In this document: one piece after another, positions 51,151-62,846 of the stretch | How positions within the stretch are numbered: position 1 is the stretch's first letter | Layout: the number at the start of each line of letters is the position of its first letter | Assembly: GCF_900103975.1 (NCBI RefSeq) | Contig: NZ_FNIR01000017.1 | Span: 18,927-82,926 of the forward strand | From: Klenkia soli | Lineage (GTDB): Bacteria > Actinomycetota > Actinomycetes > Mycobacteriales > Geodermatophilaceae | Direction of reading: 5' to 3' | Length of the DNA: 64,000 bases | Notes under the pieces: model-generated | Told to the model about the DNA's origin: nothing | The model's input: the letters and a program-made list of their open reading frames with translations, nothing else | Database searches by the model: none | Position numbers and translations under genes: made by a program

Positions 51151-51188
51151 ACGAACGGCCCGCTCCCTGCCGGGGGCGGGCCGTTCGT
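51151..51188. terminator. Bidirectional terminator between cbtA and the PucR gene
   Basis: A perfect 13-bp stem ACGAACGGCCCGC / GCGGGCCGTTCGT (51151-51163 with 51176-51188) encloses a 12-base loop. It lies between convergent genes and overlaps the stop of the PucR-type gene. It should stop transcription from both sides, although no T-tract is present. Confidence 0.8.
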
Positions 51189-53155
51189 CATGCCTGGGCG
51201 TGGGAGAGGGACTCCAGGCCGTCGTCCAGGAAGGGCAGGGCCGAGGCCTCGACCGGGGGCCGGTGCACCTGGTCCAGACCGCGCATGCGGGCCGCGTGCA
51301 GGGCCAGCAGCAGGTTCAGCCGCAGCGTGGGGTCGGAGGTGAAGGGCCCGAGCATGCGCTCGAGCTTGCCGATGCGGTAGCGCATCGTGTTGTAGTGGAA
51401 GTGCAGCCGGCGGGCCGACTCGGCCACGTTCAGGTTGGTCTCCAGCAGCACCCGCAGGGTGTCGCGGAGGTCGGCGGAGTCGGGGTCGGTGGCGTCGGCC
51501 AACGACCCGAGCACCTCGTCGACGTAGGAGCGCAGCTCGGAGCTGTCCGGGATCAGCGACAGCAGCCGGAACACCCCCAGCTGGTCGAAGTGGGTGACGG
51601 TGGCCTCGCCGTGGATCTCCTGGCCGACCTGCAGGGCCCGCTGCGCCTGCTGGTGGGCGTCGGCCAGCCCCGAGAGCACCTGCGCCGGCCGGCCGATGCC
51701 GGTGGCCAGCACCCGGCCCACCCGGCGCAGCCGGGCGTTGACGCGGCCGGTGACGGCGGCGACCAGCCCGGTCAGCTCCTCGGGGGTGCGGCCGTCCAGC
51801 GGCAGCACGGTGACGATCTCGGTGGCCAGCCCGGCGACGGCCGCACCGGCGACCTCGCCGTCGATCGCGGCCCGCCAGCCGTCGGCCAGCCGGTCCAGGA
51901 CGTCCAGCGCGCGGGTGGGGTCGGTGTTGGCGTCGGCCACGGTCTCGGTGGCGGTGACCAGCACGACGACCGGGCCGTCCAGTCGCCAGCCGAAGGAGCG
52001 GGTGTAGGCCAGGGCGCGCTCGGTGTGGCCCACGGTGCCGCTGACCAGCCGGCGGACCATGTCGCCCTGGAACCGCAGCTCGACCGAGTGCACGGCCTGG
52101 TGGCGGATCTCGGACAGCGCCGCGATGACCGCGCCGCGCTCGAGGACCGCCCCGGCGCCGACCAGCATCGGGCCGTGCCGGTTGACCGCGACCAGCCAGC
52201 CGTGCCGTTGGTCGCCGGCCATGATCGGCGCGACCGCGTACTCGCCGACCCCGCCGGGGAGCTCGTGGTGCCCGGGGACCAGCAGGATGCCGTCGGCCGG
52301 GGACAGGTCGGCGTCGGCCAGCACGTCGGCCGGGGTGACGATCGCCTGGTCGGCCCGGTTCTCGGAGAGCCGCCGCGCGCTGGGCAGGTCGGAGTAGGCG
52401 TCGTCGGCCGCGGCGTCCAGCAGCCAGAGCCAGTCGCGCACCTCGGTGACGTCGTCGGCCGGGCCGGCGGAGGTGGCGATCTCGCGGTCGGGGCCCAGGC
52501 CCAGCACCGCGGCGCCGTCCAGGAAGGTGGCCGCCTGCGCGGTGACCTCGGCCAGCCCGCCGCCGGTGAGCGCGACGTCGATGAACTGGTTGTGCATGCG
52601 GTCGGCCAGGCTCAGCGCCTGCGTCTGCTTGGCCACGATCGCGCCGAACACCTCGGCCACGACGAGGTCCAGCCGCGAGGTGCGCGGCAGGGCGACGATC
52701 GGAAAGCCCCGCCGGTCGGCCTCGTAGCGCACCTCGGCCGGCACCGCGGGCGGGCCGTCGGAGTCGCGGTAGGCCAGCGCGGCGGTGCCCAGCGCGGTGA
52801 GCCGCTCGATCAGCGCCCGGCACTGGCCCGGGTCGGCCGGGGGCAGCCGCGCGCCGAGGACCACCAGGACGTCGGGACCGGCGCCGGCCAGCGGGTCGGC
52901 CGGGTCGTCGACGACCACCTGGCGCACCACCCGGCCGGCACCTGCCGAGCCGGCGACCAGGGTGCCGTCGGTCAGCGCGAGCAGCTGCGTCACCGACAGG
53001 CCCATGCTGTCCTCGAGCGCGGTGCGCTCGGTCGGGGCCACCCGGGACAACGCGGGCTCCGACCGCTGCGGGACCTGACGGAACGGAGCCGTACGAATAC
53101 CCTCCGACATGCCAGTCACCGCATACTCACGATCAGTCACCGCGTCGTCCCCCAT
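51188..53155 (-). CDS. PucR-family transcriptional regulator
   Basis: Regulator of 655 residues from the ATG at 53155. The N-terminal PucR domain (about residues 55-180) contains GLSVTQLLALTDGTLVAG. A central GAF/CdaR-like region follows, and the C-terminal HTH (about residues 580-625) reads TLRVLLETNLNVAESARRL then FHYNTMRYRIGKLERML. PucR-type proteins control purine or other nitrogen-compound catabolism. It diverges from the DUF2877 gene, which it may control. The start is uncertain: in-frame ATGs also occur at 53218 and 53110. Confidence 0.85.
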   Translation of the reverse strand: MGDDAVTDREYAVTGMSEGIRTAPFRQVPQRSEPALSRVAPTERTALEDSMGLSVTQLLALTDGTLVAGSAGAGRVVRQVVVDDPADPLAGAGPDVLVVLGARLPPADPGQCRALIERLTALGTAALAYRDSDGPPAVPAEVRYEADRRGFPIVALPRTSRLDLVVAEVFGAIVAKQTQALSLADRMHNQFIDVALTGGGLAEVTAQAATFLDGAAVLGLGPDREIATSAGPADDVTEVRDWLWLLDAAADDAYSDLPSARRLSENRADQAIVTPADVLADADLSPADGILLVPGHHELPGGVGEYAVAPIMAGDQRHGWLVAVNRHGPMLVGAGAVLERGAVIAALSEIRHQAVHSVELRFQGDMVRRLVSGTVGHTERALAYTRSFGWRLDGPVVVLVTATETVADANTDPTRALDVLDRLADGWRAAIDGEVAGAAVAGLATEIVTVLPLDGRTPEELTGLVAAVTGRVNARLRRVGRVLATGIGRPAQVLSGLADAHQQAQRALQVGQEIHGEATVTHFDQLGVFRLLSLIPDSSELRSYVDEVLGSLADATDPDSADLRDTLRVLLETNLNVAESARRLHFHYNTMRYRIGKLERMLGPFTSDPTLRLNLLLALHAARMRGLDQVHRPPVEASALPFLDDGLESLSHAQA

Positions 53156-53221
53156 GTCGCTCGATTGCCGGACACACGCCCCGGATTCTGTCAGAGCTAC
53201 CCGTCCAGCCGCACGCATTCT

Positions 53222-53236
53222 TGGCTAGTTCCGCCA
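53222..53236. promoter_or_regulatory. Candidate operator between PucR and DUF2877 genes
   Basis: The perfect inverted repeat TGGC-N7-GCCA (53222-53236) lies in the 248-base gap between the two divergent start codons. Nothing else obviously regulatory is seen there beyond two AT-richer patches around 53225 and 53260. It is a candidate site for the adjacent regulator. Confidence 0.4.
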
Positions 53237-53403
53237 TACGGAGCTGTCCGACGCGCCGCATAGGTTCGAGTTCCGCGCAGTGATCCCGTGCACGGATGGT
53301 AAGCCGTCGCCGACGGTGCCGGACCCCGGTCCGGCGCGCCTCCGCACGGCACCGCACGGACGGCGGCCCAGGGGTCGGCCGCCGGCACCCACGGGAGGAC
53401 AGC

Positions 53404-54405
53404 ATGCGCACCGCAGCACCGCACGAGACCACCACCGCCGTGGGTCGCGCCGCCCGCATGGGCGTGCCCACCATCCCGCTCCCCCGGGACTCCGCGCAGG
53501 CCGCCCGCCGCACCGCCGGGCCCGCCCGCGACCTCCCCGTCGCCGCCACCGCCGCCCCCGCCGTGCCGGCCGCCGCCAGCACCGGGATCGCCGAGCTGCT
53601 GCGCGGCCCCGCCCGGCGCGCGAGCGTGCTGCTGTCGGTGCCGGCCGCGGTCTACCTGAGCGTGCCCACCGCCCAGGGCGTCGAGGTCGTCGGCGTGCTG
53701 ACCGCCGACGCCGCCCGGCTGCCCCTGGGCCTCGTGCTGTCCCGCCGGGCCAACGGCCGTCCCCTGGTCTCCGCGCCCTCGGGCGCCCCGGCCACCGTCG
53801 GCGGTGGCCGGGTCGTGGTCGGCGACCTCACCGTGTCCGCCGCCGCGTGGTGGGACCCCCGCCCCCGCCTGCCCGGCGCCCGCCCCTCCCTGCTGCCCGA
53901 GGGCGTGCGCACGCTGCGCACCGCGCTCTACGGCGACGCCCCGCACAGCGCGTTCGTGCTGCCCGGTCTGCCCGGCGGCCCCAGCGGCCCGCTGGCCGCC
54001 CTGCGCGGTGCAGTCCGCCGCGCCGACCTGGACGCCGCGCTGCGCACGGCCACCCGCCTGGTCGGTCTCGGTCCGGGCCTCACCCCGGCCGGCGACGACG
54101 TCCTGGCCGGCACCGTGGCCGGGCTGGTCCTGCTGGGTCACCCCGCGGCCGAGCGCTTCGGCGCCGGGGTGCACGCCCTGGCCGCCGCGCGCACCACCGA
54201 GCTGTCCCGGGCGCTGCTCAAGCACGCCGCGGCCGGTCGGGTCAGCGGCGAGTTCGCCGCCGTGGTCCGCGGGCTGGTCGGCCAGGGTGATCTGGTCGCC
54301 GCGATCGCCGCCCTGCTGGCCACCGGCTCCACCAGCGGCCGGGCGATGACCCTGGGGCTGTGCACCGCCATCGACCTGGCCGAGCGGACCGCCCGCCCCC
54401 GCTGA
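53404..54405 (+). CDS. DUF2877 protein (AllH/YlbF-like)
   Basis: Protein of 333 residues belonging to DUF2877, the family that includes E. coli AllH (YlbF), a subunit of the oxamic transcarbamylase AllFGH in anaerobic allantoin use. Typical family segments are LRGAVRRADLDAALRTATRL near residue 205 and GLGPGLTPAGDDVLAG near residue 225, with an ARTTELSRALLKHAAAGR region near 262. The first 60 residues are Ala/Pro-rich and poorly conserved. Partner AllF or AllG genes are not in view. ATG start preceded by GGGAGGA. Confidence 0.8.
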   Translation: MRTAAPHETTTAVGRAARMGVPTIPLPRDSAQAARRTAGPARDLPVAATAAPAVPAAASTGIAELLRGPARRASVLLSVPAAVYLSVPTAQGVEVVGVLTADAARLPLGLVLSRRANGRPLVSAPSGAPATVGGGRVVVGDLTVSAAAWWDPRPRLPGARPSLLPEGVRTLRTALYGDAPHSAFVLPGLPGGPSGPLAALRGAVRRADLDAALRTATRLVGLGPGLTPAGDDVLAGTVAGLVLLGHPAAERFGAGVHALAAARTTELSRALLKHAAAGRVSGEFAAVVRGLVGQGDLVAAIAALLATGSTSGRAMTLGLCTAIDLAERTARPR

Positions 54406-54422
54406 CGCGGGGCGCGGGCGGT
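54388..54422. terminator. Bidirectional terminator hairpin after the DUF2877 gene
   Basis: A nine-base outer stem ACCGCCCGC/GCGGGCGGT (54388-54396 with 54414-54422) plus a six-base inner stem CCCCGC/GCGGGG, with one bulged C and loop TGAC. The loop contains the DUF2877 stop codon. It separates that gene from the convergent catabolic operon ending at 54431. Confidence 0.8.
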
Positions 54423-54430
54423 CCCGCCGG

Positions 54431-55597
54431 TCAGCGGCCGGCGAAGGTGTCGGCGACCCAGTCGGCCACGAAGACGCTGACGTGCGGCAGGTGGTCCAGC
54501 CCGATGTGCTCGGTGGCCCCCTCCTCGGGGGTGAAGACCCGCAGCTCGCGCTTGGGGGAGTTCACGGCCTGCTCGTAGGAGCGGTGCGCGTACTCCAGCG
54601 GGATCTGCCGGTCGTTCGCCCCGTGGGCCACGAGGAACGGCACGGTGATCTGCTCGACCACGCCGTCCAGGTGCACGCCGTCGGCGAAGTCCAGGAAGGC
54701 GTCGAGGTGGTGCTCGTCGCCCTCGATGCCCCACACCCACAGCACGTGCGACCAGTAGTGCGGCACGGGCCGCTCGCCCTCGCGCTGGGCCCGACGGCGC
54801 TGGACCGCGCCCCAGTTGTGGTTGGCGCCCCACGCCACGCACAGCGCGAAGCGCTTCTCGAACGCCGCCGCCCGCGGGGAGAAGTAGCCGCCCAGCGACC
54901 AGCCCACGATGCCGATCCTCGAGGTGTCGACGTCGTCGCGGGTCTCGAGCCAGTCCACCGCCGCGCCGGCCCACACCTCGGTGTCGATGCGGGCGGTGAT
55001 GCCCTGCAGCCGCAGCGACTCCCCCGTGCCCGGCTGGTCGAGCATGAGGCAGGAGATGCCGCGCTCGGCGAGCTCCAGCCAGTGGTTGGAGGAGTACATG
55101 TGCTCCTTGGTGGAGTCCAGGCCGTTGACCAGCACGATCACCGGGGCCGGACCGTCGTCGGTGGCCGGGGCGGCGCTGAAGTAGGCCGGCAGGGTCTGGC
55201 CCTCGTAGGGGATCTCGACCCGGCTCACCCGTGGGCTGTGGGTGGCGAAGGCGCGCTCGGCGAGCTCGGTGACCCGCTTGTACGTGGGCACCCGGTCGGG
55301 GCTGGTGTGGGCGAGCATCCGCTCGGCCTGGCACAGGTAGTTGGTCGCCCGGAACCACAGCTGCCCGGCGGTGCGCGTGTGCCCGGCCTTCTCGGCCGCC
55401 TCGGCCTGGTCGACCAGCTGGTCGGTCAGCGCCGTCCAGGCCCGCAGGAAGTCCTGGGTGCCGGCGTCCTCGCCCTGCTGGGCGGCGTCCTTGATCGGGC
55501 GGCAGGCGCGGTCGACCTCGTCGATGAGGCCCCCGGAGTTCAGGGTGGCGACGACGCCCAGGTTCCAGACGTAGTTGCCCGGGAAGTACTCGAACAC
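54431..55597 (-). CDS. Alpha/beta hydrolase, C-C bond hydrolase-like (DHPON hydrolase type)
   Basis: Alpha/beta hydrolase of 388 residues. The nucleophile elbow GWSLGGY places Ser at about residue 234. DQPGTGES near residue 187, the acid in HGANDRQIP near 320 and a late His in EHIGLDHLP near 367 complete the triad. An N-terminal helical cap of about 120 residues precedes the core, as in 2,6-dihydroxypseudooxynicotine hydrolase and other C-C-cleaving family members. It is the last gene of the catabolic operon, 15 bases after the SDR gene. The substrate is unknown. Confidence 0.82.
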   Translation of the reverse strand: MFEYFPGNYVWNLGVVATLNSGGLIDEVDRACRPIKDAAQQGEDAGTQDFLRAWTALTDQLVDQAEAAEKAGHTRTAGQLWFRATNYLCQAERMLAHTSPDRVPTYKRVTELAERAFATHSPRVSRVEIPYEGQTLPAYFSAAPATDDGPAPVIVLVNGLDSTKEHMYSSNHWLELAERGISCLMLDQPGTGESLRLQGITARIDTEVWAGAAVDWLETRDDVDTSRIGIVGWSLGGYFSPRAAAFEKRFALCVAWGANHNWGAVQRRRAQREGERPVPHYWSHVLWVWGIEGDEHHLDAFLDFADGVHLDGVVEQITVPFLVAHGANDRQIPLEYAHRSYEQAVNSPKRELRVFTPEEGATEHIGLDHLPHVSVFVADWVADTFAGR

Positions 55598-55612
55598 GGT
55601 CGTTCCTCTCGA

Positions 55613-56371
55613 TCAGGTGGATGTGCGGACGGCGTCGCTGATGGACTTCACGCCGCCGTGGGCGGTGAGGCCGCCGTCGACGGGGATCTCCGCGCCGGTG
55701 ATGAAGGAGGCGCCCTCCCCCAGCAGGAAGGCGACCAGGGGTGCGACCTCGTCGACCGTGCCGGTGCGGCCCAGCGGCGTCTCGGCGACGTTGGCGGCCC
55801 GGAAGGCCGGTGCGGCCGAGGCGGTCATGGGCGTCTCGACGTAGCCGGGGTGGATGGTGTTGACCCGGATGCCGCGCGGGCCCAGCTCCAGGCAGGCGGC
55901 CTTGGCCAGCCCGCGCAGGGCCCACTTGCTGGCCGTGTAGGCGGCCGGGAAGTGCCCGGTCAGCCCGGCCACCGACCCGACCACCACGACCGAGCCGCCC
56001 GGCGCCATCAGCGGGGTGATCGCCTGCAGCCCGAGCAGGGTGCCGGTCACGTTGACCGCCATGACCCGCTCGAGGTCGGCCGGGGCCAGCTCGGTGACCC
56101 GGGCCCGCCAGGTGATGCCGGCGTTGCAGACCAACCCGTGCACCCCGCCGTGCACCGCGCCGAGGCCCTCGGCCAGCTCGGCCCAGCCCGCGGCGTCGGT
56201 GACGTCGAGCCTGCGGTAGGTGGCCCCGCCGAGGTCCTCGTCGGGGGTCTCCCCCAGGTCGACGGCGACCACCCGGGCGCCCAGCGAGCTGAGCAACCGC
56301 GCCTCGGCGGCCCCCTGGCCGCGGCCGGCGCCGGTGACGACGACGACCTCCCCGGCCAGGTCGGCGGTCAC
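55613..56371 (-). CDS. Short-chain dehydrogenase/reductase of the catabolic operon
   Basis: SDR of 252 residues. The cofactor motif VTGAGRGQGAAEA lies near residue 12, CNAGITWRAR near 80, Ser in VVVGSVAGLTG near 130 and catalytic Y-x-x-x-K in YTASKWALRG near 145. An Asp at the end of the second strand (VVAVDLGE) points to NAD(H). Probably oxidises a hydroxylated ring or side chain in the pathway. GTG start at 56371 overlapping the FAH stop by GTGA. Confidence 0.88.
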   Translation of the reverse strand: MTADLAGEVVVVTGAGRGQGAAEARLLSSLGARVVAVDLGETPDEDLGGATYRRLDVTDAAGWAELAEGLGAVHGGVHGLVCNAGITWRARVTELAPADLERVMAVNVTGTLLGLQAITPLMAPGGSVVVVGSVAGLTGHFPAAYTASKWALRGLAKAACLELGPRGIRVNTIHPGYVETPMTASAAPAFRAANVAETPLGRTGTVDEVAPLVAFLLGEGASFITGAEIPVDGGLTAHGGVKSISDAVRTST

Positions 56372-57342
56372 CGGGTGCGGGCGCGGGTGCGCGTCCGGGC
56401 GGGTGCGACCGGCGGCAGGTCGACCCCGGCAACCACCTGGTTGCGGATGGTGCCGATGCCCTCGACGGTCATCTCCACGACGTCCCCGGGCTGCAGGGGC
56501 GGCGGGGTCCTGGAGTCCGGGGACGAGCCGTTGCGGCCCCACAGCTCGCCCAGGCATCCGCCGTTGCCGCAGGTGCCCGAGCCGAGCACGTCCCCGGACC
56601 GGACGACGGTGCCGCGGCTGGCGTAGGCCACCAGCTCCTCGAAGGGCCAGCCCATGTTGGAGAGCAGGTCCTCGCCCACGAGTTCGCCGTTGACGCGGAC
56701 CTGCATCTGCAGGGCCAGGAACCCGTCGGCGTCGCGGTAGGGCTCCAGCTCGTCGGCCGTCACCAGCCACGGGCCCAGGGTGGTGGCGAAGTCCTTGCCC
56801 TTCGCCGGGCCGAGGCTGACCTTCATCTCGCGGGCCTGCAGGTCGCGGGCCGACCAGTCGTTGAACACGGTGTAGCCGAAGACGTGCTCGCCGGCCCGCT
56901 CCGGGGCCACCGAGGCGCCGTCGCGGCCGATGACCGCGGCCACCTCGAGCTCGAAGTCCAGCACCGAGCACCCGGGCGGGACGGCGACGTCGTCGTGGGC
57001 GCCGACCATCGCGTAGGGGTTGGTGAAGTAGAAGGTGGGCGCCTGGTACCACTCGTCGACCACGCCGCCGGTCCCGCCGGTGACGCCCTTGACCACGCCC
57101 TCGACGTGCTCCTCGAAGGCGACGAAGTCGCGCACGGTCGGCGGGTGCAGCGGCGGCAGCAGCCGCACCTCGGCCAGCGGCACGGCCGGCGCCTCCAGCG
57201 CCTGCTCCCCCGCCGCGATCGCCGTCGCCAGGCCCGACCGGACCAGCTCCAGCACGGTGGTGCCGGGGATGCCGTGCACGCCGGCGTCGGAGACGACGCC
57301 GGCGGACACCTCGCCCTGGTGCTCCCAGGTGGCGAACCGCAT
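56368..57342 (-). CDS. Fumarylacetoacetate hydrolase-family protein
   Basis: FAH-fold enzyme of 324 residues. Metal-binding residues appear in LDFELEVAAVIG near residue 125, the GYTVFNDWSARDLQAREM core near 155 and LLSNMGWPFEELVAYASRG near 225. GSGTCGNGGCLGELWGR near 250 is the typical FAH-fold loop. FAH-superfamily members hydrolyse acylpyruvates or act as 2-oxo-acid hydratases or decarboxylases after ring cleavage. ATG start; its start overlaps the dioxygenase stop (TGATG) and its stop overlaps the SDR start. Confidence 0.87.
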   Translation of the reverse strand: MRFATWEHQGEVSAGVVSDAGVHGIPGTTVLELVRSGLATAIAAGEQALEAPAVPLAEVRLLPPLHPPTVRDFVAFEEHVEGVVKGVTGGTGGVVDEWYQAPTFYFTNPYAMVGAHDDVAVPPGCSVLDFELEVAAVIGRDGASVAPERAGEHVFGYTVFNDWSARDLQAREMKVSLGPAKGKDFATTLGPWLVTADELEPYRDADGFLALQMQVRVNGELVGEDLLSNMGWPFEELVAYASRGTVVRSGDVLGSGTCGNGGCLGELWGRNGSSPDSRTPPPLQPGDVVEMTVEGIGTIRNQVVAGVDLPPVAPARTRTRARTR

Positions 57343-58292
57343 CAGACCGGGGGTGCCACGAAGAGACCCTTGTCGGGGTCGTTGAACGACTTCTGCGCGA
57401 CGAACTCGTTCATCGCGTTCGCGGTGCCCCACTGGTCGCTGACCTCGGGGTTGGAGAAGTCGTAGAGCGAGGGGTGCCAGGTGTCCTCGTCGACCAGGTC
57501 CAGCTCGGTCGTGTACTCGACGGTGTTGCCGTGCGGGTCCAGGAAGTAGGAGAACGTGTTGTTGCCGGCCATGTGCCGACCCGGGCCCCAGATCTTCTCC
57601 ACGCCCGCGCGCAGCGCCCGGCCGGTGCCGCGCATGTACTCGTCGATGCCGCGCAGCTCGAAGGAGGCGTGGTGCAGCGAGGCGTGCGGGCCGCGGGCCA
57701 CCGCGAGGCTGTGGTGCCAGGCGTTGGTGCGCAGGAAATACATCATGTTGCCCATGCGGGGGTGCATGAGGGTGTCCGACAGCGCGAACCCGAAGTGCTG
57801 CTCGTAGAACGCGACCGTCTTCTCGGGCTCGCTGGAGTTGATCACCACGTGCGACAGCCGCACCGGGATCGACTCGCCCTCCTCGATCTTGCGGTGCTCG
57901 CGGACGGCGACGTCGGCCGAGACCTCGACGGTGCGGCCCTCGTTGTCGAAGAAGCGGAAGCCGTAGCCGCCGCCGGGGGTCTGCAGGTCGGTCGGCTCGT
58001 GCACCAGCTGCACACCGGCGCTGGCCATGCGGGCGGCCAGGGTGTCGACGTCGGCCCGGTTCGCGGCACCGAAGGAGATCAGGTCGATACGCTTGTCGGC
58101 GGCCTCACGGAGCCGGACGACGTACTGCTCGGGGCTGCCCTCGGCGGCCAGGAACGAGAGACCGCTGTCGGTGGTCTCCTCCTTCAGGCCCCAGGTGTTG
58201 GTGAAGAAGTCGGTCTGGGTGCGCAGGTCCGGCACGGCCAGGTCGATGTGGCGCAGGTGGGTGATGAGGCGGGTCTTCTCGGGTGCGGTCAC
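57342..58292 (-). CDS. Type I extradiol ring-cleavage dioxygenase (VOC fold)
   Basis: Two-module VOC enzyme of 316 residues that cleaves a catechol-like ring next to the diol. The Fe(II) ligands occur at expected places: His148 in RLSHVV, His207 or 208 in LHHASFEL and Glu259 in GNTVEYTTEL. The PHGNTVEY ending is the BphC/type I signature. It sits between the flavin monooxygenase, which would provide the diol, and the FAH-type enzyme, which could process the product. ATG start. Confidence 0.9.
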   Translation of the reverse strand: MTAPEKTRLITHLRHIDLAVPDLRTQTDFFTNTWGLKEETTDSGLSFLAAEGSPEQYVVRLREAADKRIDLISFGAANRADVDTLAARMASAGVQLVHEPTDLQTPGGGYGFRFFDNEGRTVEVSADVAVREHRKIEEGESIPVRLSHVVINSSEPEKTVAFYEQHFGFALSDTLMHPRMGNMMYFLRTNAWHHSLAVARGPHASLHHASFELRGIDEYMRGTGRALRAGVEKIWGPGRHMAGNNTFSYFLDPHGNTVEYTTELDLVDEDTWHPSLYDFSNPEVSDQWGTANAMNEFVAQKSFNDPDKGLFVAPPV

Positions 58293-58305
58293 TGTCTTCT
58301 CCTGG

Positions 58306-59436
58306 TTACGCGGGCTGGCTGACGACGGTGGCGACCCCGCGCATGAGCGACGCGACGTCGCCCTGCACGTGGTCGAGCTGCCACTGGGCGAGCTGGTTGG
58401 AGGCGTCGACGACGGTGCGGGCCCGCTCGACGCGGCGGTCGTGGAAGGCGTCCCACAGCTCGGCGTCCAGGACGTCGCGCTCGACGAGCAGCTGCCCGAG
58501 GACGGCGGCGTCCTCCAACGCCTGCGCGCCGCCCTGGGCCACGGTGGGCGGGCAGGTGTGCGCGGCGTCGCCGATCACGACCACCCGGCCGCGGTTCCAC
58601 GGCGCGGGCAGCAGGTGGGTCTCGAACCAGGTGTAGTTCACCCGGGACGGGTCGGTGAGCGACGCGCGGATCTCGTCCCAGGGCCCGTGGTAGGCCTCGG
58701 ACAGCTGGCGCATGGTGGCCAGCTGCTCGTCGGGGGTCAGGGTCGAGCGGTCCTGGGCGTCCTCGACGATGTAGGCGTAGATCGAGTCCTCGGCCGTCGG
58801 GCAGTAGCCGGCGATGTAGCTGGGCCCGCCGTAGAACAGGTCGGTGCGGGTGACGCTGGCCGGCCGGGGGCCGAAGGCGCGCCAGATGCCCATGCCGGTG
58901 GACTTCGTCTCGAGCTCGATGCCGATCATGCGGCGGGTCCACGACCGCACGCCGTCGGCGCCGATCACCAGGTCGTAGCGGCCCGACGAGCCGTCGGAGA
59001 ACGTGACGTCGACGCCGTTGTCGTCCTGGGTCAGGTCCGTGGTGGTCGTGGCGTAGCGCAGCTTCACCCCGACCTCGGCGGCCTTGTCGTGCAGCAGCCC
59101 TGCCAGGTCGGGGCGGGTCATGCCCATGGCTGCCGGGTAGTCCGGGCCACCGGTCTTCGCGTCCGGGACGGCGAACATCTCGCTGCCGGCCGGGTCCGGC
59201 GCCCGGAAGCCGGTGACGTCGAAGGGGTAGCCGCGGTCGCGTGCGGACTCCCAGACGCCGAGGCCGTCGAGCTCGCGCAGGGCGTTGCCCTGCAGGGTGA
59301 TGCCCGAGCCGAGGGCGTGGACGTCGGGCTTGACCTCGACCAGGTCGACCGCCACGCCGGCGCGCGCGAGCCGGATGGCGACACCGGCACCGGCCAGGCC
59401 ACCGCCGACCACCAGGACGTTCTGCACTGCACTCAT
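58306..59436 (-). CDS. FAD-dependent aromatic monooxygenase
   Basis: Flavoprotein hydroxylase of 376 residues, UbiH/PHBH-like. The FAD dinucleotide motif is VVGGGLAGAGVAIRLA near residue 9; the DG motif is VIGADGVRSWTRR near residue 158, and the GD motif VVIGDAAHTCPPTVAQGG lies near residue 293. Such enzymes use NAD(P)H and O2 to hydroxylate aromatic or N-heteroaromatic rings. It is 10 bases after the cyclase gene and 13 bases ahead of the dioxygenase gene. ATG start. Confidence 0.9.
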   Translation of the reverse strand: MSAVQNVLVVGGGLAGAGVAIRLARAGVAVDLVEVKPDVHALGSGITLQGNALRELDGLGVWESARDRGYPFDVTGFRAPDPAGSEMFAVPDAKTGGPDYPAAMGMTRPDLAGLLHDKAAEVGVKLRYATTTTDLTQDDNGVDVTFSDGSSGRYDLVIGADGVRSWTRRMIGIELETKSTGMGIWRAFGPRPASVTRTDLFYGGPSYIAGYCPTAEDSIYAYIVEDAQDRSTLTPDEQLATMRQLSEAYHGPWDEIRASLTDPSRVNYTWFETHLLPAPWNRGRVVVIGDAAHTCPPTVAQGGAQALEDAAVLGQLLVERDVLDAELWDAFHDRRVERARTVVDASNQLAQWQLDHVQGDVASLMRGVATVVSQPA

Positions 59437-59446
59437 CGCGGCACTC

Positions 59447-60424
59447 CTACTTGACGGCGATCGGGGCGACCGGGGCGCCGACGGCGCCGGTCACGGGCAG
59501 GGGCGGGGCGGCGAGCAGGAACTCGTGGACGCCGTCGGCCGCGCAGTCGTCGGCCAGCGCCTCGAGGTCCCACATCTCGCCCAGGAACAGGCCCAGGTGC
59601 GGGATGGCGACCTGGTGGAAGGGCTGGAAGGTGGGCACCGAGAACTCGCTGGGCCGCACCTCGACGCCCCAGGTGTCGGTGGCCACGGCGGCGACGTCGT
59701 GCTCGCGCAGCCAGTCCAGGCTGGTGAACGACAGGCCCGGGGACTCGCCACCGGCGTAGTCGCCCCAGCCGGTGCCGGCGGCGATGGAGCGGCGGGCGCG
59801 GGCCAGCCGGCCGGTGCGCACCAGCAGCAGGTCGCCGCCGGTGACCTCGACCCCGGCGGCCGCGGCACAGGCGTCGAGGTGCTCGGGGGTGATCGCGAAG
59901 CCGTCGGGCAGCTCGCCGTCGGTGCCGTGCGAGCGGCCGACGTCCAGCAGCACGCCGCGGCCGACGAACCGGCCGGCGGTGGTCTCGATGCCGGTGGTGT
60001 TGTCGCCCTCGCTGGTCACGATCGCCCCGGCCCGGCGGCCGTTGTAGGCCTTGCCGTGGTCGAAGATGTGGCCCAGGCCGTCCCACTGGGTGGAGGCCTG
60101 CAGCGGCATGGTGATCATGTCGTCGGCGCCGCCGATGCCGTGCGGGAAGGCGGGGATGCCGGCCTCGGCGTCCAGGCCGGTGCCGAGCATGGCGTGCACG
60201 GGGTTGACCCGGCGCAGCCAGCCCTTCTGCGGGCCGTCGGTGTTGAAGTGCTGGGTGAGGTCGAAGCTCTCGCCCCGGCGGACCAGGGCCGCGCCCTGCA
60301 CCCGCTTCTCCGGGGTGAGCAGGTTGAGGGTGCCGAGCACGTCGTCGTCGCCCCACCGGCCCCAGTTGGAGACCCGCCCGGCGGCGGCGGCGATGGTGGC
60401 TTCGGGGTCCTGCGGGTCGAACAC
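59447..60424 (-). CDS. Cyclase-family metal-dependent hydrolase
   Basis: Member of the cyclase family (kynurenine formamidase and isatin hydrolase fold), 325 residues. Metal-binding positions appear in STQWDGLGHIFDHGK near residue 112, in place of the common H-x-GTH-x-D-x-x-H, and a C-terminal FHQVAIPHLGLFLGEMWDLEAL. The usual first histidine of HxGTHxD is replaced by QWDG, so it is an atypical member, similar to several actinobacterial relatives. It opens the catabolic operon and may act on an amide or lactone of the substrate. ATG or GTG at 60424. Confidence 0.8.
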   Translation of the reverse strand: MFDPQDPEATIAAAAGRVSNWGRWGDDDVLGTLNLLTPEKRVQGAALVRRGESFDLTQHFNTDGPQKGWLRRVNPVHAMLGTGLDAEAGIPAFPHGIGGADDMITMPLQASTQWDGLGHIFDHGKAYNGRRAGAIVTSEGDNTTGIETTAGRFVGRGVLLDVGRSHGTDGELPDGFAITPEHLDACAAAAGVEVTGGDLLLVRTGRLARARRSIAAGTGWGDYAGGESPGLSFTSLDWLREHDVAAVATDTWGVEVRPSEFSVPTFQPFHQVAIPHLGLFLGEMWDLEALADDCAADGVHEFLLAAPPLPVTGAVGAPVAPIAVK

Positions 60425-60497
60425 GGCAGCGCACTCCTGTCATCGGTGACGCGGACCACTGTCGACCCGGACGGGCCATCAGGGAAGACCGGATCCT

Positions 60498-60512
60498 TGA
60501 TGCCGGGCATCA
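60498..60512. promoter_or_regulatory. Candidate LysR operator in the divergent promoter
   Basis: TGATGCC-G-GGCATCA (60498-60512) is a perfect 15-bp palindrome of T-N13-A form in the 109-base gap between the cyclase and LysR genes. A second inverted repeat, ATCAGGGA/TCCTTGAT (60478-60485 with 60494-60501, one mismatch), overlaps it. This is the layout of the recognition and activation sites of LysR-type regulators. Confidence 0.65.
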
Positions 60513-60533
60513 GTCGGGTGGATGATCCGCGGT

Positions 60534-61454
60534 GTGAACGTGGCCAACCTGGACCTCAACCTGCTGGTGTCCCTGGACGCCCTGCTGGGCCAGCGCAGCG
60601 TCACGAAGGCGGCCAAGCAGCTGGGGTTGTCGCAGCCGGCCCTGTCGGCGTCGCTGGCCCGGCTGCGCCGGCACTTCGGCGACGACCTGCTCACCCGGGT
60701 CGGCAACGAGTACCGGCTGACCCCGCTGGCCGGCCAGCTGCAGCTGCAGGCCCGGCTGGCGCTGGAGTCGGTGCACCGGGTGTTCACCGCGCAGCCCTCG
60801 TTCGACCCGGCCGAGTCGACCCGGGAGTTCAGCCTGCTGCTCTCGGACTACGGGGTCACGGTGCTGGGCGACACCCTCGCCGCGCTGCTGGACGAGGTGG
60901 CCCCGCACGCCCGGCTGCGGCTGGCGCCGCACACCCCGGAGCTGGTCGACCGGGCCGACCAGGCGCTGCTGGCGGTGGACCTCATGCTGCTGCCGATGGG
61001 CTTCCTGGCCGACCTGCCGCACGCCGAGCTCTACGCCGACGAGTGGGTGGTGGTGTTCTCGGCCGACCACCCCGACATCGACGACCGGGTGACCGTCGAC
61101 CAGCTGCGCACGCTGCCCTGGGTGGCGGTCTACCACGGCCCGAACGCCTCGACCCCGGCCGCGCGGGTGCTGCGGCAGCGGGGCATCGAGCCCACGGTGC
61201 AGGTGGTCACCGAGAACTTCCTGACCGTACCCGGTCTGGTCGCCGGCTCGCGCCGCATCTCGCTGCTGCAGCGCCGGCTGGTCGACCTGCTGCCCCTGGA
61301 CACCGGGGTGCGCACGCTGCCGTGCCCGCTGGACGTCGGTGGGCTGGTCGAGGCCATGTGGTGGCACCCGGTCTACGAGCGCGACCCCGACCACGTGTTC
61401 CTGCGCGACCTGGTGCTGCGGGCCGCCCGGCAGGCCACCACGCCGGTCGGCTGA
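60534..61454 (+). CDS. LysR-family transcriptional regulator
   Basis: Regulator of 306 residues from GTG 60534 (ATG at 60522 is four codons earlier). The N-terminal helix-turn-helix reads NLDLNLLVSLDALLGQRSV then KAAKQLGLSQPALSASLARL. The C-terminal effector domain has FSLLLSDYGVTVLGDTLAALL near residue 95. NodD/PcpR-like LysR proteins of this layout sense aromatic inducers. It diverges from the catabolic operon, which it probably activates from the palindrome between them. Confidence 0.9.
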   Translation: MNVANLDLNLLVSLDALLGQRSVTKAAKQLGLSQPALSASLARLRRHFGDDLLTRVGNEYRLTPLAGQLQLQARLALESVHRVFTAQPSFDPAESTREFSLLLSDYGVTVLGDTLAALLDEVAPHARLRLAPHTPELVDRADQALLAVDLMLLPMGFLADLPHAELYADEWVVVFSADHPDIDDRVTVDQLRTLPWVAVYHGPNASTPAARVLRQRGIEPTVQVVTENFLTVPGLVAGSRRISLLQRRLVDLLPLDTGVRTLPCPLDVGGLVEAMWWHPVYERDPDHVFLRDLVLRAARQATTPVG

Positions 61455-61575
61455 CCCATCCACGGGGCTGATGCACCCCGCCGCAGGATCTATTGGTGGT
61501 GGGGCCTCCCGGTCCGCACACTCCCGCTCAGTGACACCGGTCACCGACGACCAGCACCGAGCCCAGGAGAACACC

Positions 61576-62796
61576 GTGTCCCAGACCCTCGACGGTCCCG
61601 TCCCCGGGGCGGCCGCCACCGGCATCGACGTGGGTGCCCTGCACCCGGTCACGGGCCGCCCGGCCCGCCGCCGCGAGATCGCCGTCCTCATGGCCGCCAG
61701 CTGCATGCCGATCCTCGGCGCCGTGCTGCTGGCCCCGGTCCTGCCCACCCTGCAGCGGGCGTTCGCCGGCACCCCCGGGGTGGACGCCCTGGCCCCGCTC
61801 GTGCTCACCGCGCCGGCGCTGATGATCGCGCTGCTGGCCCCGGTCGCCGGCCGCATCGTCGACGCCGTCGGCCGCAAGCGGCTGCTGGTCGGCGCCCTGG
61901 CCGTCTACGCCGTGCTCGGCACCGCGCCCGTGCTGCTGGACTCGTTGCCCGCCGTCCTCGCCACCCGCATCGGCGTCGGCATCACCGAGGCCGCGATCAT
62001 GACCTGCTGCACCACCCTGATCGCCGACTACTCCGCCGGTGCCCGCCGGGCCAAGCTCTTCGGCCTGCAGACCATCGCCACCACGCTGTCGGCCACCGTG
62101 TTCTTCGCCCTCGGCGGCGCCCTGGGCAGCAGCAACTGGCAGACGCCGTTCTACCTCTACCTGCTGGCCCTGCCGCTGGCCGTGCTGGCCGCCGTCCTGC
62201 TCTGGACCCCGACCGTGCCGCCGCGCGCCACCACCGCGCTGCCCCCGCTTCCCTGGCGTCGCATGCTGGTGCCGCTGGCCGTCAGCCTGGTCGGCGGCGT
62301 GGTGTTCTACACCCCGATCGTCGAGCTGTCCTACGTGCTGGACTCCCTCGGCGTCACCGCGACCGCCGCCATCGGCGGGATCGCGGCCGTCGCGTCGCTG
62401 GCCACCGCCGCGGGCGCGGCCTCGTTCCCGAGGATCGCCGCCCGGGGCCCCAGGTTCCTGCTGCCGCTGGCCTTCGGGCTCGCCGGGCTCGGCCTGGTCG
62501 TGCTGGGCCTGGCCCCCGCCGTGCCGGTCGCCGTGGTCGGTGCGGTCATCGCCAGCGCGGGCACCGGGATCATGCTGCCCAGCCTGCTCACCTGGGTCGT
62601 CGGCGGCCTGGCGCTCGAGGAGCGCGGCCGCGGCACCGGCCGCTGGACCGCCGCCCTGTTCCTCGGCGAGTTCCTCTGCCCGCTGCTGGTCATCGCCATC
62701 TCCGGTGCGCTGTCGGGCATCGCCGCCGCGGTCGCCGTCGTCGGCGGCATCTCGGTGCTGATCGCGGTCGTCGTCCGGCAGCTGCGCCTGACCTGA
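61576..62796 (+). CDS. MFS transporter next to the catabolic cluster
   Basis: Transporter of 406 residues with about twelve hydrophobic segments. Motif A is PVAGRIVDAVGRKRLL near residue 85 and the second-half counterpart is weak (FPRIAARGPRFLLPL). A long N-terminal cytoplasmic stretch of 35 residues precedes the first helix (IAVLMAASCMPILGAVLLAP). GTG start with AGGAGA six bases upstream. It follows the LysR gene on the same strand with a 121-base gap, so it may import the pathway substrate or export an intermediate. A perfect terminator follows. Confidence 0.86.
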   Translation: MSQTLDGPVPGAAATGIDVGALHPVTGRPARRREIAVLMAASCMPILGAVLLAPVLPTLQRAFAGTPGVDALAPLVLTAPALMIALLAPVAGRIVDAVGRKRLLVGALAVYAVLGTAPVLLDSLPAVLATRIGVGITEAAIMTCCTTLIADYSAGARRAKLFGLQTIATTLSATVFFALGGALGSSNWQTPFYLYLLALPLAVLAAVLLWTPTVPPRATTALPPLPWRRMLVPLAVSLVGGVVFYTPIVELSYVLDSLGVTATAAIGGIAAVASLATAAGAASFPRIAARGPRFLLPLAFGLAGLGLVVLGLAPAVPVAVVGAVIASAGTGIMLPSLLTWVVGGLALEERGRGTGRWTAALFLGEFLCPLLVIAISGALSGIAAAVAVVGGISVLIAVVVRQLRLT

Positions 62797-62807
62797 CCGC
62801 TCGCGCG

Positions 62808-62840
62808 GGCCCCGATGTCGGGCTACCCGACATCGGGGCC
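62808..62840. terminator. Perfect 15-bp bidirectional terminator
   Basis: GGCCCCGATGTCGGG (62808-62822) pairs perfectly with 62826-62840 around the three-base loop CTA. It lies between convergent genes (MFS ends 62796, the small minus-strand gene ends 62847). It should stop transcription in both directions and marks the edge of the cluster. Confidence 0.85.
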
Positions 62841-62846
62841 GCGCCG

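What the first reader, a model, noticed from the sequence alone, without database searches (positions are those of the whole stretch)
54431..62796. Six-gene ring-cleavage operon with its own LysR regulator and transporter, substrate unknown
Cyclase-family hydrolase, flavin monooxygenase, type I extradiol dioxygenase, FAH-family enzyme, SDR and a DHPON-hydrolase-like alpha/beta hydrolase are packed with gaps of at most 15 bases or overlaps, facing a LysR gene and an MFS gene, and bounded by two strong terminators (54388-54422 and 62808-62840). The order reads as hydroxylation, ring cleavage, then C-C and acylpyruvate-type hydrolysis. No classical meta-pathway aldolase or aldehyde dehydrogenase is present and the opening cyclase is unusual, so the pathway may be for an amide-, lactone- or N-heterocycle-bearing aromatic. 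The pathway direction is inference from enzyme families.
Basis: partly seen in the sequence, partly recalled or inferred. Interest (0 to 1): 0.72.

Follow-up and report, generated by a model that had tools for sequence, protein, structure and literature searches.

The report
Actinobacterial flavonoid-type A-ring degradation operon
A soil-type actinobacterium and nearly half of the genomes searched in its family carry a tight set of ring-opening genes built around a hydrolase that also sits in bacterial gene clusters resembling the one for breaking down the plant flavonoid naringenin, so the set is predicted to let these bacteria dismantle flavonoid-like plant compounds, which would extend that chemistry to a second large bacterial group.

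Summary
The operon is real and as described: six minus-strand genes (hydrolase, SDR, FAH, type I extradiol dioxygenase, flavin monooxygenase, cyclase), junctions from a 4-base overlap to a 15-base gap, divergent from LysR and MFS genes, flanked by strong hairpins without U-tracts. It is not an orphan. The hydrolase is 51% identical over its full length to the hydrolase beside FdeC-type dioxygenases in proteobacterial clusters whose order fits the naringenin fde operon, and about 23% identical to the nicotine-pathway hydrolase. The monooxygenase belongs to the same NCBIfam subfamily as the FMOs of those clusters; dioxygenase, cyclase and FAH are same-superfamily stand-ins from other subfamilies. 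In its bacterial family hydrolase and dioxygenase occur together, within about 3 kb, in 49 of 112 genomes; 2 have the dioxygenase alone. The SDR is optional. Best explanation: predicted A-ring catabolism of a flavonoid-like polyphenol: hydroxylation, extradiol cleavage, retro-Claisen C-C hydrolysis, then cyclase and FAH hydrolysis. The N-heterocycle reading is disfavoured. No substrate was tested, and Herbaspirillum's own sequences could not be fetched. New variant of a known kind.

The parts
54431..55597 (-). alpha/beta hydrolase (ABH) of the FrsA / DHPON-hydrolase / Ayg1 / AntI fold class, of the type at the FdeB position of fde-like clusters; predicted retro-Claisen C-C hydrolase. Motifs GWSLGG (Ser234), GANDRQ (Asp329), TEHIG (His364); the three residues are invariant over 21 sequences
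55613..56371 (-). SDR oxidoreductase (adh_short_C2), optional member of the operon
56368..57342 (-). FAH-family hydrolase (PF01557), predicted acylpyruvate-type hydrolase
57342..58292 (-). type I (VOC) extradiol dioxygenase (EDO) with His148, His208, Glu259 as likely metal ligands; closest solved chain 3b59
58306..59436 (-). group A flavin monooxygenase (FMO), NCBIfam NF005313 (421.9 bits, cut-off 372); GGGLAG and GDAAHTCPPTVAQG motifs
59447..60424 (-). long cyclase-family hydrolase (PF04199, 325 aa), QASTQWDGLGH in place of the HxGTHxDxxxH of the short fde-like cyclase; closest solved chain 5ibz
60425..60521 (.). divergent intergenic region, presumed to hold the operon promoter and the LysR site (no sigma-70-like site found)
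60522..61454 (+). LysR-type regulator, divergent from the operon
61576..62796 (+). MFS transporter
54383..54428 (-). strong hairpin at the 3' end of the operon (no U-tract), shared with the convergent gene
62803..62846 (+). strong hairpin after the MFS gene (no U-tract)

Best explanation
The operon is a set of ring-cleavage-family genes beside a divergent LysR gene, found in 49 of 112 genomes searched in its family (by its hydrolase and dioxygenase), that likely takes apart the A-ring of a flavonoid-like plant polyphenol by the same logic as the naringenin-degrading fde pathway. Shown here: gene content, order, conservation, and that the hydrolase (ABH) is close kin of the one beside FdeC-type dioxygenases in fde-like clusters. 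Inferred: the MFS protein imports the compound and LysR senses it; the FMO adds a hydroxyl next to an existing one on the A-ring (C8 for FdeE and IfcA) to make a catechol; the extradiol dioxygenase opens that ring; the ABH hydrolyses the resulting 1,3-dicarbonyl by a retro-Claisen C-C cleavage, releasing a short oxo-acid from a pyranone or lactone that carries the rest of the molecule; the cyclase-family hydrolase opens that lactone and the FAH-family enzyme splits the acylpyruvate-type fragment; the SDR, present in about half of the relatives by gene spacing, adjusts a carbonyl for particular substrates.
For: (1) ABH: 51% identity over 388 residues to the Diaphorobacter and Massilia proteins near FdeC-type EDOs, 46-53% to the other fde-like, Nitrospirillum and sphingomonad ones compared; 45 rows of this type are split by one branch from 4 outgroup rows (SH-aLRT 93; DHPON hydrolase itself was not in the tree). 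(2) Cluster identity: the Massilia VOC is 62% identical to P0166, named by its source 'naringenin degradation protein FdeC'; Diaphorobacter, Azospirillum, B. anthina and P. hospita show ABH, VOC, Rieske, FMO, then cyclase, FAH and epimerase in that order, with MFS and cupin genes in three of them and some insertions, which fits FdeC = Hsero_1005 and FdeE = Hsero_1007 (PMC10755750, passages). (3) PMC11069340 (passages and section 16) says that the ifc hotspot's DHPON-like alpha/beta hydrolase, FMO and glyoxalase resemble fde genes. (4) FMO in the same NCBIfam subfamily, above cut-off, as the 3 fde-like and 1 sphingomonad FMOs tried. (5) Two distantly related EDO types interchange around the same ABH: window-type in actinobacteria and sphingomonads, FdeC-type in Burkholderiales, Azospirillum, Marinomonas and G559, which argues for one shared task. 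(6) ABH and EDO lie on one contig, starts at most 3.03 kb apart, in 49 of 49 ABH-bearing genomes among 112 of the family; 2 have EDO only, 61 neither at this threshold. (7) The ABH model (pLDDT 80.7) has DHPON hydrolase, Ayg1/Wdyg1 and AntI among its best full-length fold matches; DHPON hydrolase cleaves a C-C bond and Ayg1, Wdyg1 and AntI trim hydroxyaryl polyketides, a retro-Claisen reaction (PMC11165489, passages). (8) fdeR too is a LysR gene divergent from its operon and responds to naringenin (PMC10799723, passages).
Against: The EDO is 32-37% identical to FdeC types over the C-terminal half and 26% over the length in one, and lies in another deep clade; the FAH matches over 160 residues at 34% and no blastp match to the fde-like cyclase was found; no Rieske ferredoxin, cupin or epimerase gene is in the operon. 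FMO identity is only 33-38%. FrsA and SMU_737 match the ABH model as well as DHPON hydrolase does, so fold alone does not give retro-Claisen chemistry. The EDO subfamily also occurs in unrelated contexts. Knock-out of the ifc hydrolase 59470 did not affect daidzein degradation. Of 8 other class-level genomes with an ABH, L037 and L044 lack most of the set. A LysR gene beside a catabolic operon is common and says little.
Confidence: 0.55

Rival explanations
1. Same chemistry, other substrate: the operon degrades a non-flavonoid acyl-phloroglucinol, chromone, xanthone or aromatic polyketide pigment made by plants, fungi or other actinobacteria; FMO, EDO and ABH act as in the best explanation.
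For: The ABH fold class acts on polyketide-derived hydroxyaryl compounds as well (Ayg1, Wdyg1, AntI); actinobacterial FMO and EDO form their own clades, so substrate range may differ; a Streptomyces plasmid relative of the EDO lies near polyketide synthase genes.
Against: The only literature links that I found for clusters holding this ABH type are to flavonoids (fde by FdeC-type neighbours; ifc).
Confidence: 0.25
2. An N-heterocycle (hydroxypyridine, nicotine-derived pyridine, indole derivative) is the substrate.
For: DHPON hydrolase (2jbw) is the best PDB hit of the ABH by sequence and by Foldseek; 6-hydroxynicotinate 3-monooxygenase is the best PDB hit of the FMO.
Against: About 23% identity to 2jbw against 46-53% to hydrolases of fde-like and sphingomonad clusters; the 4-hydroxypyridine kpi cluster uses an amidohydrolase-type dioxygenase and another alpha/beta hydrolase (PMC7356986, passages).
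Confidence: 0.07
3. A simple substituted phenol or hydroxybenzoate/phenylacetate meta-pathway, with ABH as an ordinary meta-cleavage-product hydrolase and FAH as hydratase or isomerase.
For: EDO is closest in NCBIfam to catechol 2,3-dioxygenase and HpaD, FAH to rhamnonate-pathway, fumarylacetoacetase and HpaG models.
Against: All those matches are far below their cut-offs; no aldolase or semialdehyde dehydrogenase among the genes of 54431-62796; the ABH has the long N-terminal lid of the FrsA class, unlike meta-cleavage hydrolases (last clause recalled).
Confidence: 0.08

Closest known systems
fde (naringenin degradation) operon of Herbaspirillum seropedicae SmR1 (known here from papers only) and fde-like clusters of Diaphorobacter, Azospirillum, Burkholderia, Massilia (compared here)
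   Same: ABH close kin (51% to Diaphorobacter and Massilia), FMO of the same NCBIfam subfamily, an extradiol VOC dioxygenase, a PF04199 cyclase, an FAH enzyme, MFS and LysR genes
   Different: EDO, cyclase and FAH are from other subfamilies; no Rieske ferredoxin, cupin or epimerase; an SDR instead; Actinomycetota
ifc (isoflavone catabolism) cluster of Variovorax sp. V35
   Same: FMO then extradiol VOC logic; a DHPON-like alpha/beta hydrolase in the hotspot (PMC11069340, passages)
   Different: IfcD cupins absent here; V35 hydrolase not needed for daidzein; four Bradyrhizobium loci with a more distant FMO (about 35% to the Diaphorobacter one) had no ABH within 15 kb
Sphingomonad FMO-EDO-ABH-cyclase-FAH clusters (e.g. 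Novosphingobium pentaromativorans pLA3, N. resinovorum HR1a)
   Same: same five enzyme types, with window-type EDO (39%) and ABH (48%) in these two
   Different: short cyclase, TonB receptor and MBL-fold hydrolase added; I met no reported substrate
2,6-dihydroxypseudooxynicotine hydrolase (2jbw), Ayg1/Wdyg1, AntI, FrsA
   Different: 15-23% identity; other pathways

Membership tests
fde-type flavonoid A-ring pathway | FdeB-position alpha/beta hydrolase of the same type | tested here: met
   51% over 388 aa to Diaphorobacter and Massilia cluster members; one side of a branch against 4 outgroups
fde-type flavonoid A-ring pathway | FdeE-type FMO (8-hydroxylase) | tested here: inconclusive
   same NCBIfam subfamily over cut-off but 33-38% identity and its own clade
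fde-type flavonoid A-ring pathway | FdeC-type dioxygenase | tested here: not met
   an extradiol VOC enzyme with the metal-ligand motif, but of another deep clade
fde-type flavonoid A-ring pathway | Rieske ferredoxin, cupin, epimerase genes | tested here: not met
   none in 54431-62796
fde-type flavonoid A-ring pathway | cyclase, FAH, MFS, LysR genes alongside | tested here: met
   same Pfam families for cyclase and FAH, though other subfamilies; MFS and divergent LysR present
fde-type flavonoid A-ring pathway | growth on, induction by, or turnover of naringenin | not testable with these tools
   needs experiment
DHPON hydrolase (nicotine pathway) | close sequence relation to 2jbw | tested here: not met
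   about 23% identity
FrsA-class lidded alpha/beta hydrolases | full-length fold with N-terminal helical lid and Ser-Asp-His | tested here: met
4-hydroxypyridine kpi pathway | KpiC amidohydrolase-type dioxygenase | tested here: not met
   operon has a VOC dioxygenase and no amidohydrolase gene

The most novel reading that the evidence does not exclude
Flavonoid A-ring catabolism is a modular pathway shared by Actinomycetota, sphingomonads and Burkholderiales in which the FdeB-type hydrolase is the fixed core: it is the missing retro-Claisen enzyme that splits the ring-cleavage product of 5-hydroxylated flavonoids into an oxaloacetate-like acid and a pyranone, while dioxygenase, cyclase and finishing enzymes have been swapped for distant or unrelated ones in each lineage.
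Probability: 0.35. Interest if true: 0.68.

Novelty: new variant of a known kind. Interest (0 to 1): 0.5.

Why it matters
If true, aerobic flavonoid A-ring breakdown, which the papers I saw describe for Herbaspirillum and Variovorax, with IfcA homologs reported only from Proteobacteria (PMC11069340), is also widespread in soil actinobacteria. It also names a candidate for the C-C cleavage step that the ifc study left unassigned (compound X2 to X3), at least for 5-hydroxy substrates, which one enzyme assay can test.

Tried and rejected
N-heterocycle reading: rejected as main reading on identity and on the kpi comparison. EDO as diagnostic gene: dropped, because close relatives (64-68%) sit in unrelated Rhodococcus, Corynebacterium and Streptomyces contexts. 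Twenty extra proteins near the ABH in other actinobacteria (phosphoesterase, methyltransferase, PLP decarboxylase, FAD_binding_4 and others) gave no clear substrate hint. Paper searches turned up no actinobacterial flavonoid A-ring cluster; the library lacks most subscription papers, and the two original Marin fde papers are not held. A search for palindromic T-N11-A LysR boxes (at least 5 of 6 positions) near the LysR and MFS starts gave none. My ORF clustering of the 80 named loci undercounts: it put EDO in 71, FMO in 64, FAH in 63, LysR in 57 of 80, yet one search found FMO and EDO in L122 and L123 that it had missed. Tree rows were chosen by hand: 19 of the 20 regions, 17 of the 80 named loci under a sphingomonad label (incl. 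Caulobacter and Rhodobacteraceae) and 3 under an fde-like label, and plasmid loci; quick trees, SH-aLRT only, several long branches flagged. Of the 22 plasmid records, 12 were fetched, 4 of the 7 Bradyrhizobium ones among them.
Full report
Observation. Pfam and NCBIfam give the named families. The flanking inverted repeats fold with z -6.5 and -7.2 but have no U-tract, and the consensus scan lists no terminator and no sigma-70 promoter.

Conservation. With the dioxygenase (EDO) as probe, 33 of 60 relatives (own genome included) have some match at E<=0.001; the 7 other same-genus genomes that are 99% complete (G001-G007) have a 94-99% one, the 73% complete G008 none. In the 15 short loci returned (own included), cyclase-FMO-EDO-FAH are adjacent in 15. 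Of 7 same-family or same-genus regions holding the hydrolase (L045-L048, L050-L052), cyclase-FMO-EDO-FAH-ABH is found in 7, SDR in 3, the divergent LysR in 6, MFS in 4 (in L046 the hydrolase match is split in two). Over 112 family genomes (own included) the hydrolase (ABH, E<=1e-100) is in 49 and the EDO in 51; all 49 ABH genomes carry an EDO on the same contig, start-to-start 1.9-3.03 kb; 2 have EDO only; 61 have neither. Spacings fall into 25 short and 24 long, as expected from absence or presence of the 0.76-kb SDR (the SDR itself was looked for only in the loci above). Fisher's test gives p about 8e-30, but genomes are not independent. Across the class, 9 of 246 sampled genomes (own included) have the ABH at E<=1e-60; of the 8 others, five (L038, L039, L040, L042, L043) carry it within about 10 kb of an FMO homolog, L041 has FAH and SDR about 7 kb away with an EDO cut by the region's end, L037 and L044 lack most of the set, and L043 has only a 23% EDO-like match. 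Twelve of the regions are not in the count of 7: five (L049, L053-L056) were fetched for their EDO and show other arrangements without an ABH match in the region, the rest are the class-level ones just told.

Link to fde. Sphingomonad plasmids showed FMO-EDO-ABH-cyclase-FAH, and one scan of named genomes gave 80 loci of that hydrolase, mostly sphingomonads, with Nitrospirillum, Marinomonas, Caulobacter and others. In Marinomonas (L126) and G559 (L142) the same ABH, cyclase and FAH come with a different EDO type. A protein search with the Massilia member of that type returned P0166, named 'naringenin degradation protein FdeC' by its source. Plasmid loci with this type show ABH-VOC-Rieske-FMO-MFS-cyclase-cupin-FAH-epimerase: complete in Diaphorobacter and P. 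hospita, complete with an inserted EthD gene in B. anthina, with parts missing or moved elsewhere. This is consistent with FdeC = Hsero_1005 and FdeE = Hsero_1007 (PMC10755750, passages), with a ten-ORF operon (PMC9422121, passages) and with a divergent, naringenin-responsive LysR, FdeR (PMC10799723, passages). That FdeB is the ABH is my inference from this order, helped by the statement that the ifc hotspot's DHPON-like hydrolase resembles an fde gene (PMC11069340, passages).

How far the window fits. ABH: 51% over the whole length to Diaphorobacter and Massilia, 46-50% to others. FMO: 33-38%, NF005313 at 421.9 bits against 479-535 for four relatives, cut-off 372. EDO: 32-37% over the C-terminal half, 26% over the length in L126, other clade. 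FAH: 34% over 160 residues. Cyclase: same Pfam family, no blastp match to the short fde-like cyclase; its QASTQWDGLGH stands in place of HxGTHxDxxxH. So the actinobacterial operon shares the core hydrolase type and the FMO subfamily, and fills the remaining roles with other subfamilies.

A hint on the hydrolase's role. In the 12 plasmid loci compared, FMOs 55-100% identical to the Diaphorobacter FdeE-position protein (itself included) come with the ABH in 7 of 7 loci (L146, L147, L149, L150, L152, L153, L166); L148 has ABH and EDO without an FMO match. Four Bradyrhizobium loci with FMOs at about 35% (IfcA-like by position and identity, not compared with IfcA itself) have no ABH within 15 kb. 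In Variovorax V35 disruption of the hydrolase left daidzein degradation intact and the X2-to-X3 enzyme is unidentified (section 16). Daidzein lacks the 5-hydroxyl whose keto form would make the ring-cleavage product a 1,3-dicarbonyl; a retro-Claisen hydrolase would then be needed for 5-hydroxy compounds only. This is inference from recalled structures; soybean strains also meet genistein, which has the 5-hydroxyl, so the absence from Bradyrhizobium loci is not clean support.

Downstream. The own genome has 8 places matching the intradiol dioxygenase family over its cut-off, so routes for a released B-ring catechol or protocatechuate are plausible, not shown.

Organism. Not told; named hits to the EDO at 81-85% are Geodermatophilus and Modestobacter proteins, so a Geodermatophilaceae-like actinobacterium is my inference.

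Verdict. A real, conserved but patchily distributed operon, best read as the actinobacterial variant of fde-type A-ring catabolism; substrate class inferred, not tested.

Noticed in passing
L053 (7976-9055) and L056: Sister operon in a same-order and a same-family genome: EDO and FMO separated by about 1 kb, in L053 by an Amidohydro_2 (PF04909) gene, with no ABH match in the region; the C-C hydrolase step may be replaced by a decarboxylase for another substrate (the L056 insert was not translated).
   Followed up: partly
L152 (Paraburkholderia hospita pmHSR1_P): An ifc-like set (FAH, more distant FMO, FdeC-like EDO, Rieske) lies about 5 kb before a full fde-like set on one plasmid typed as conjugative.
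   Followed up: no
L153 and hits H67-H71 (Roseomonas mucosa plasmids): Five Roseomonas mucosa plasmids, four from human samples, carry the FdeC-type gene; L153, the one fetched, has an ABH-EDO-FMO trio.
   Followed up: no
L062, L064, L070, L072 and others; L148: Some sphingomonad loci have a GH3-like glycosidase gene near the set, others a P450-like or Rieske-oxygenase-like gene (read by eye from sequence); a Pseudomonas plasmid has an annotated GH3 gene near it. As if glycosylated or methoxylated plant compounds were handled.
   Followed up: no
window 51188-54405: Left neighbours are a PucR-type regulator (51188-53218, minus) and an AllH-like oxamate carbamoyltransferase subunit gene (53296-54405, plus), suggesting purine or allantoin catabolism.
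   Followed up: no
L043 (G260): An actinobacterial cluster with LysR, cyclase, FMO, FAH, ABH, SDR and MFS homologs but only a 23% identical EDO-like protein: a possible third dioxygenase type around the same hydrolase.
   Followed up: no
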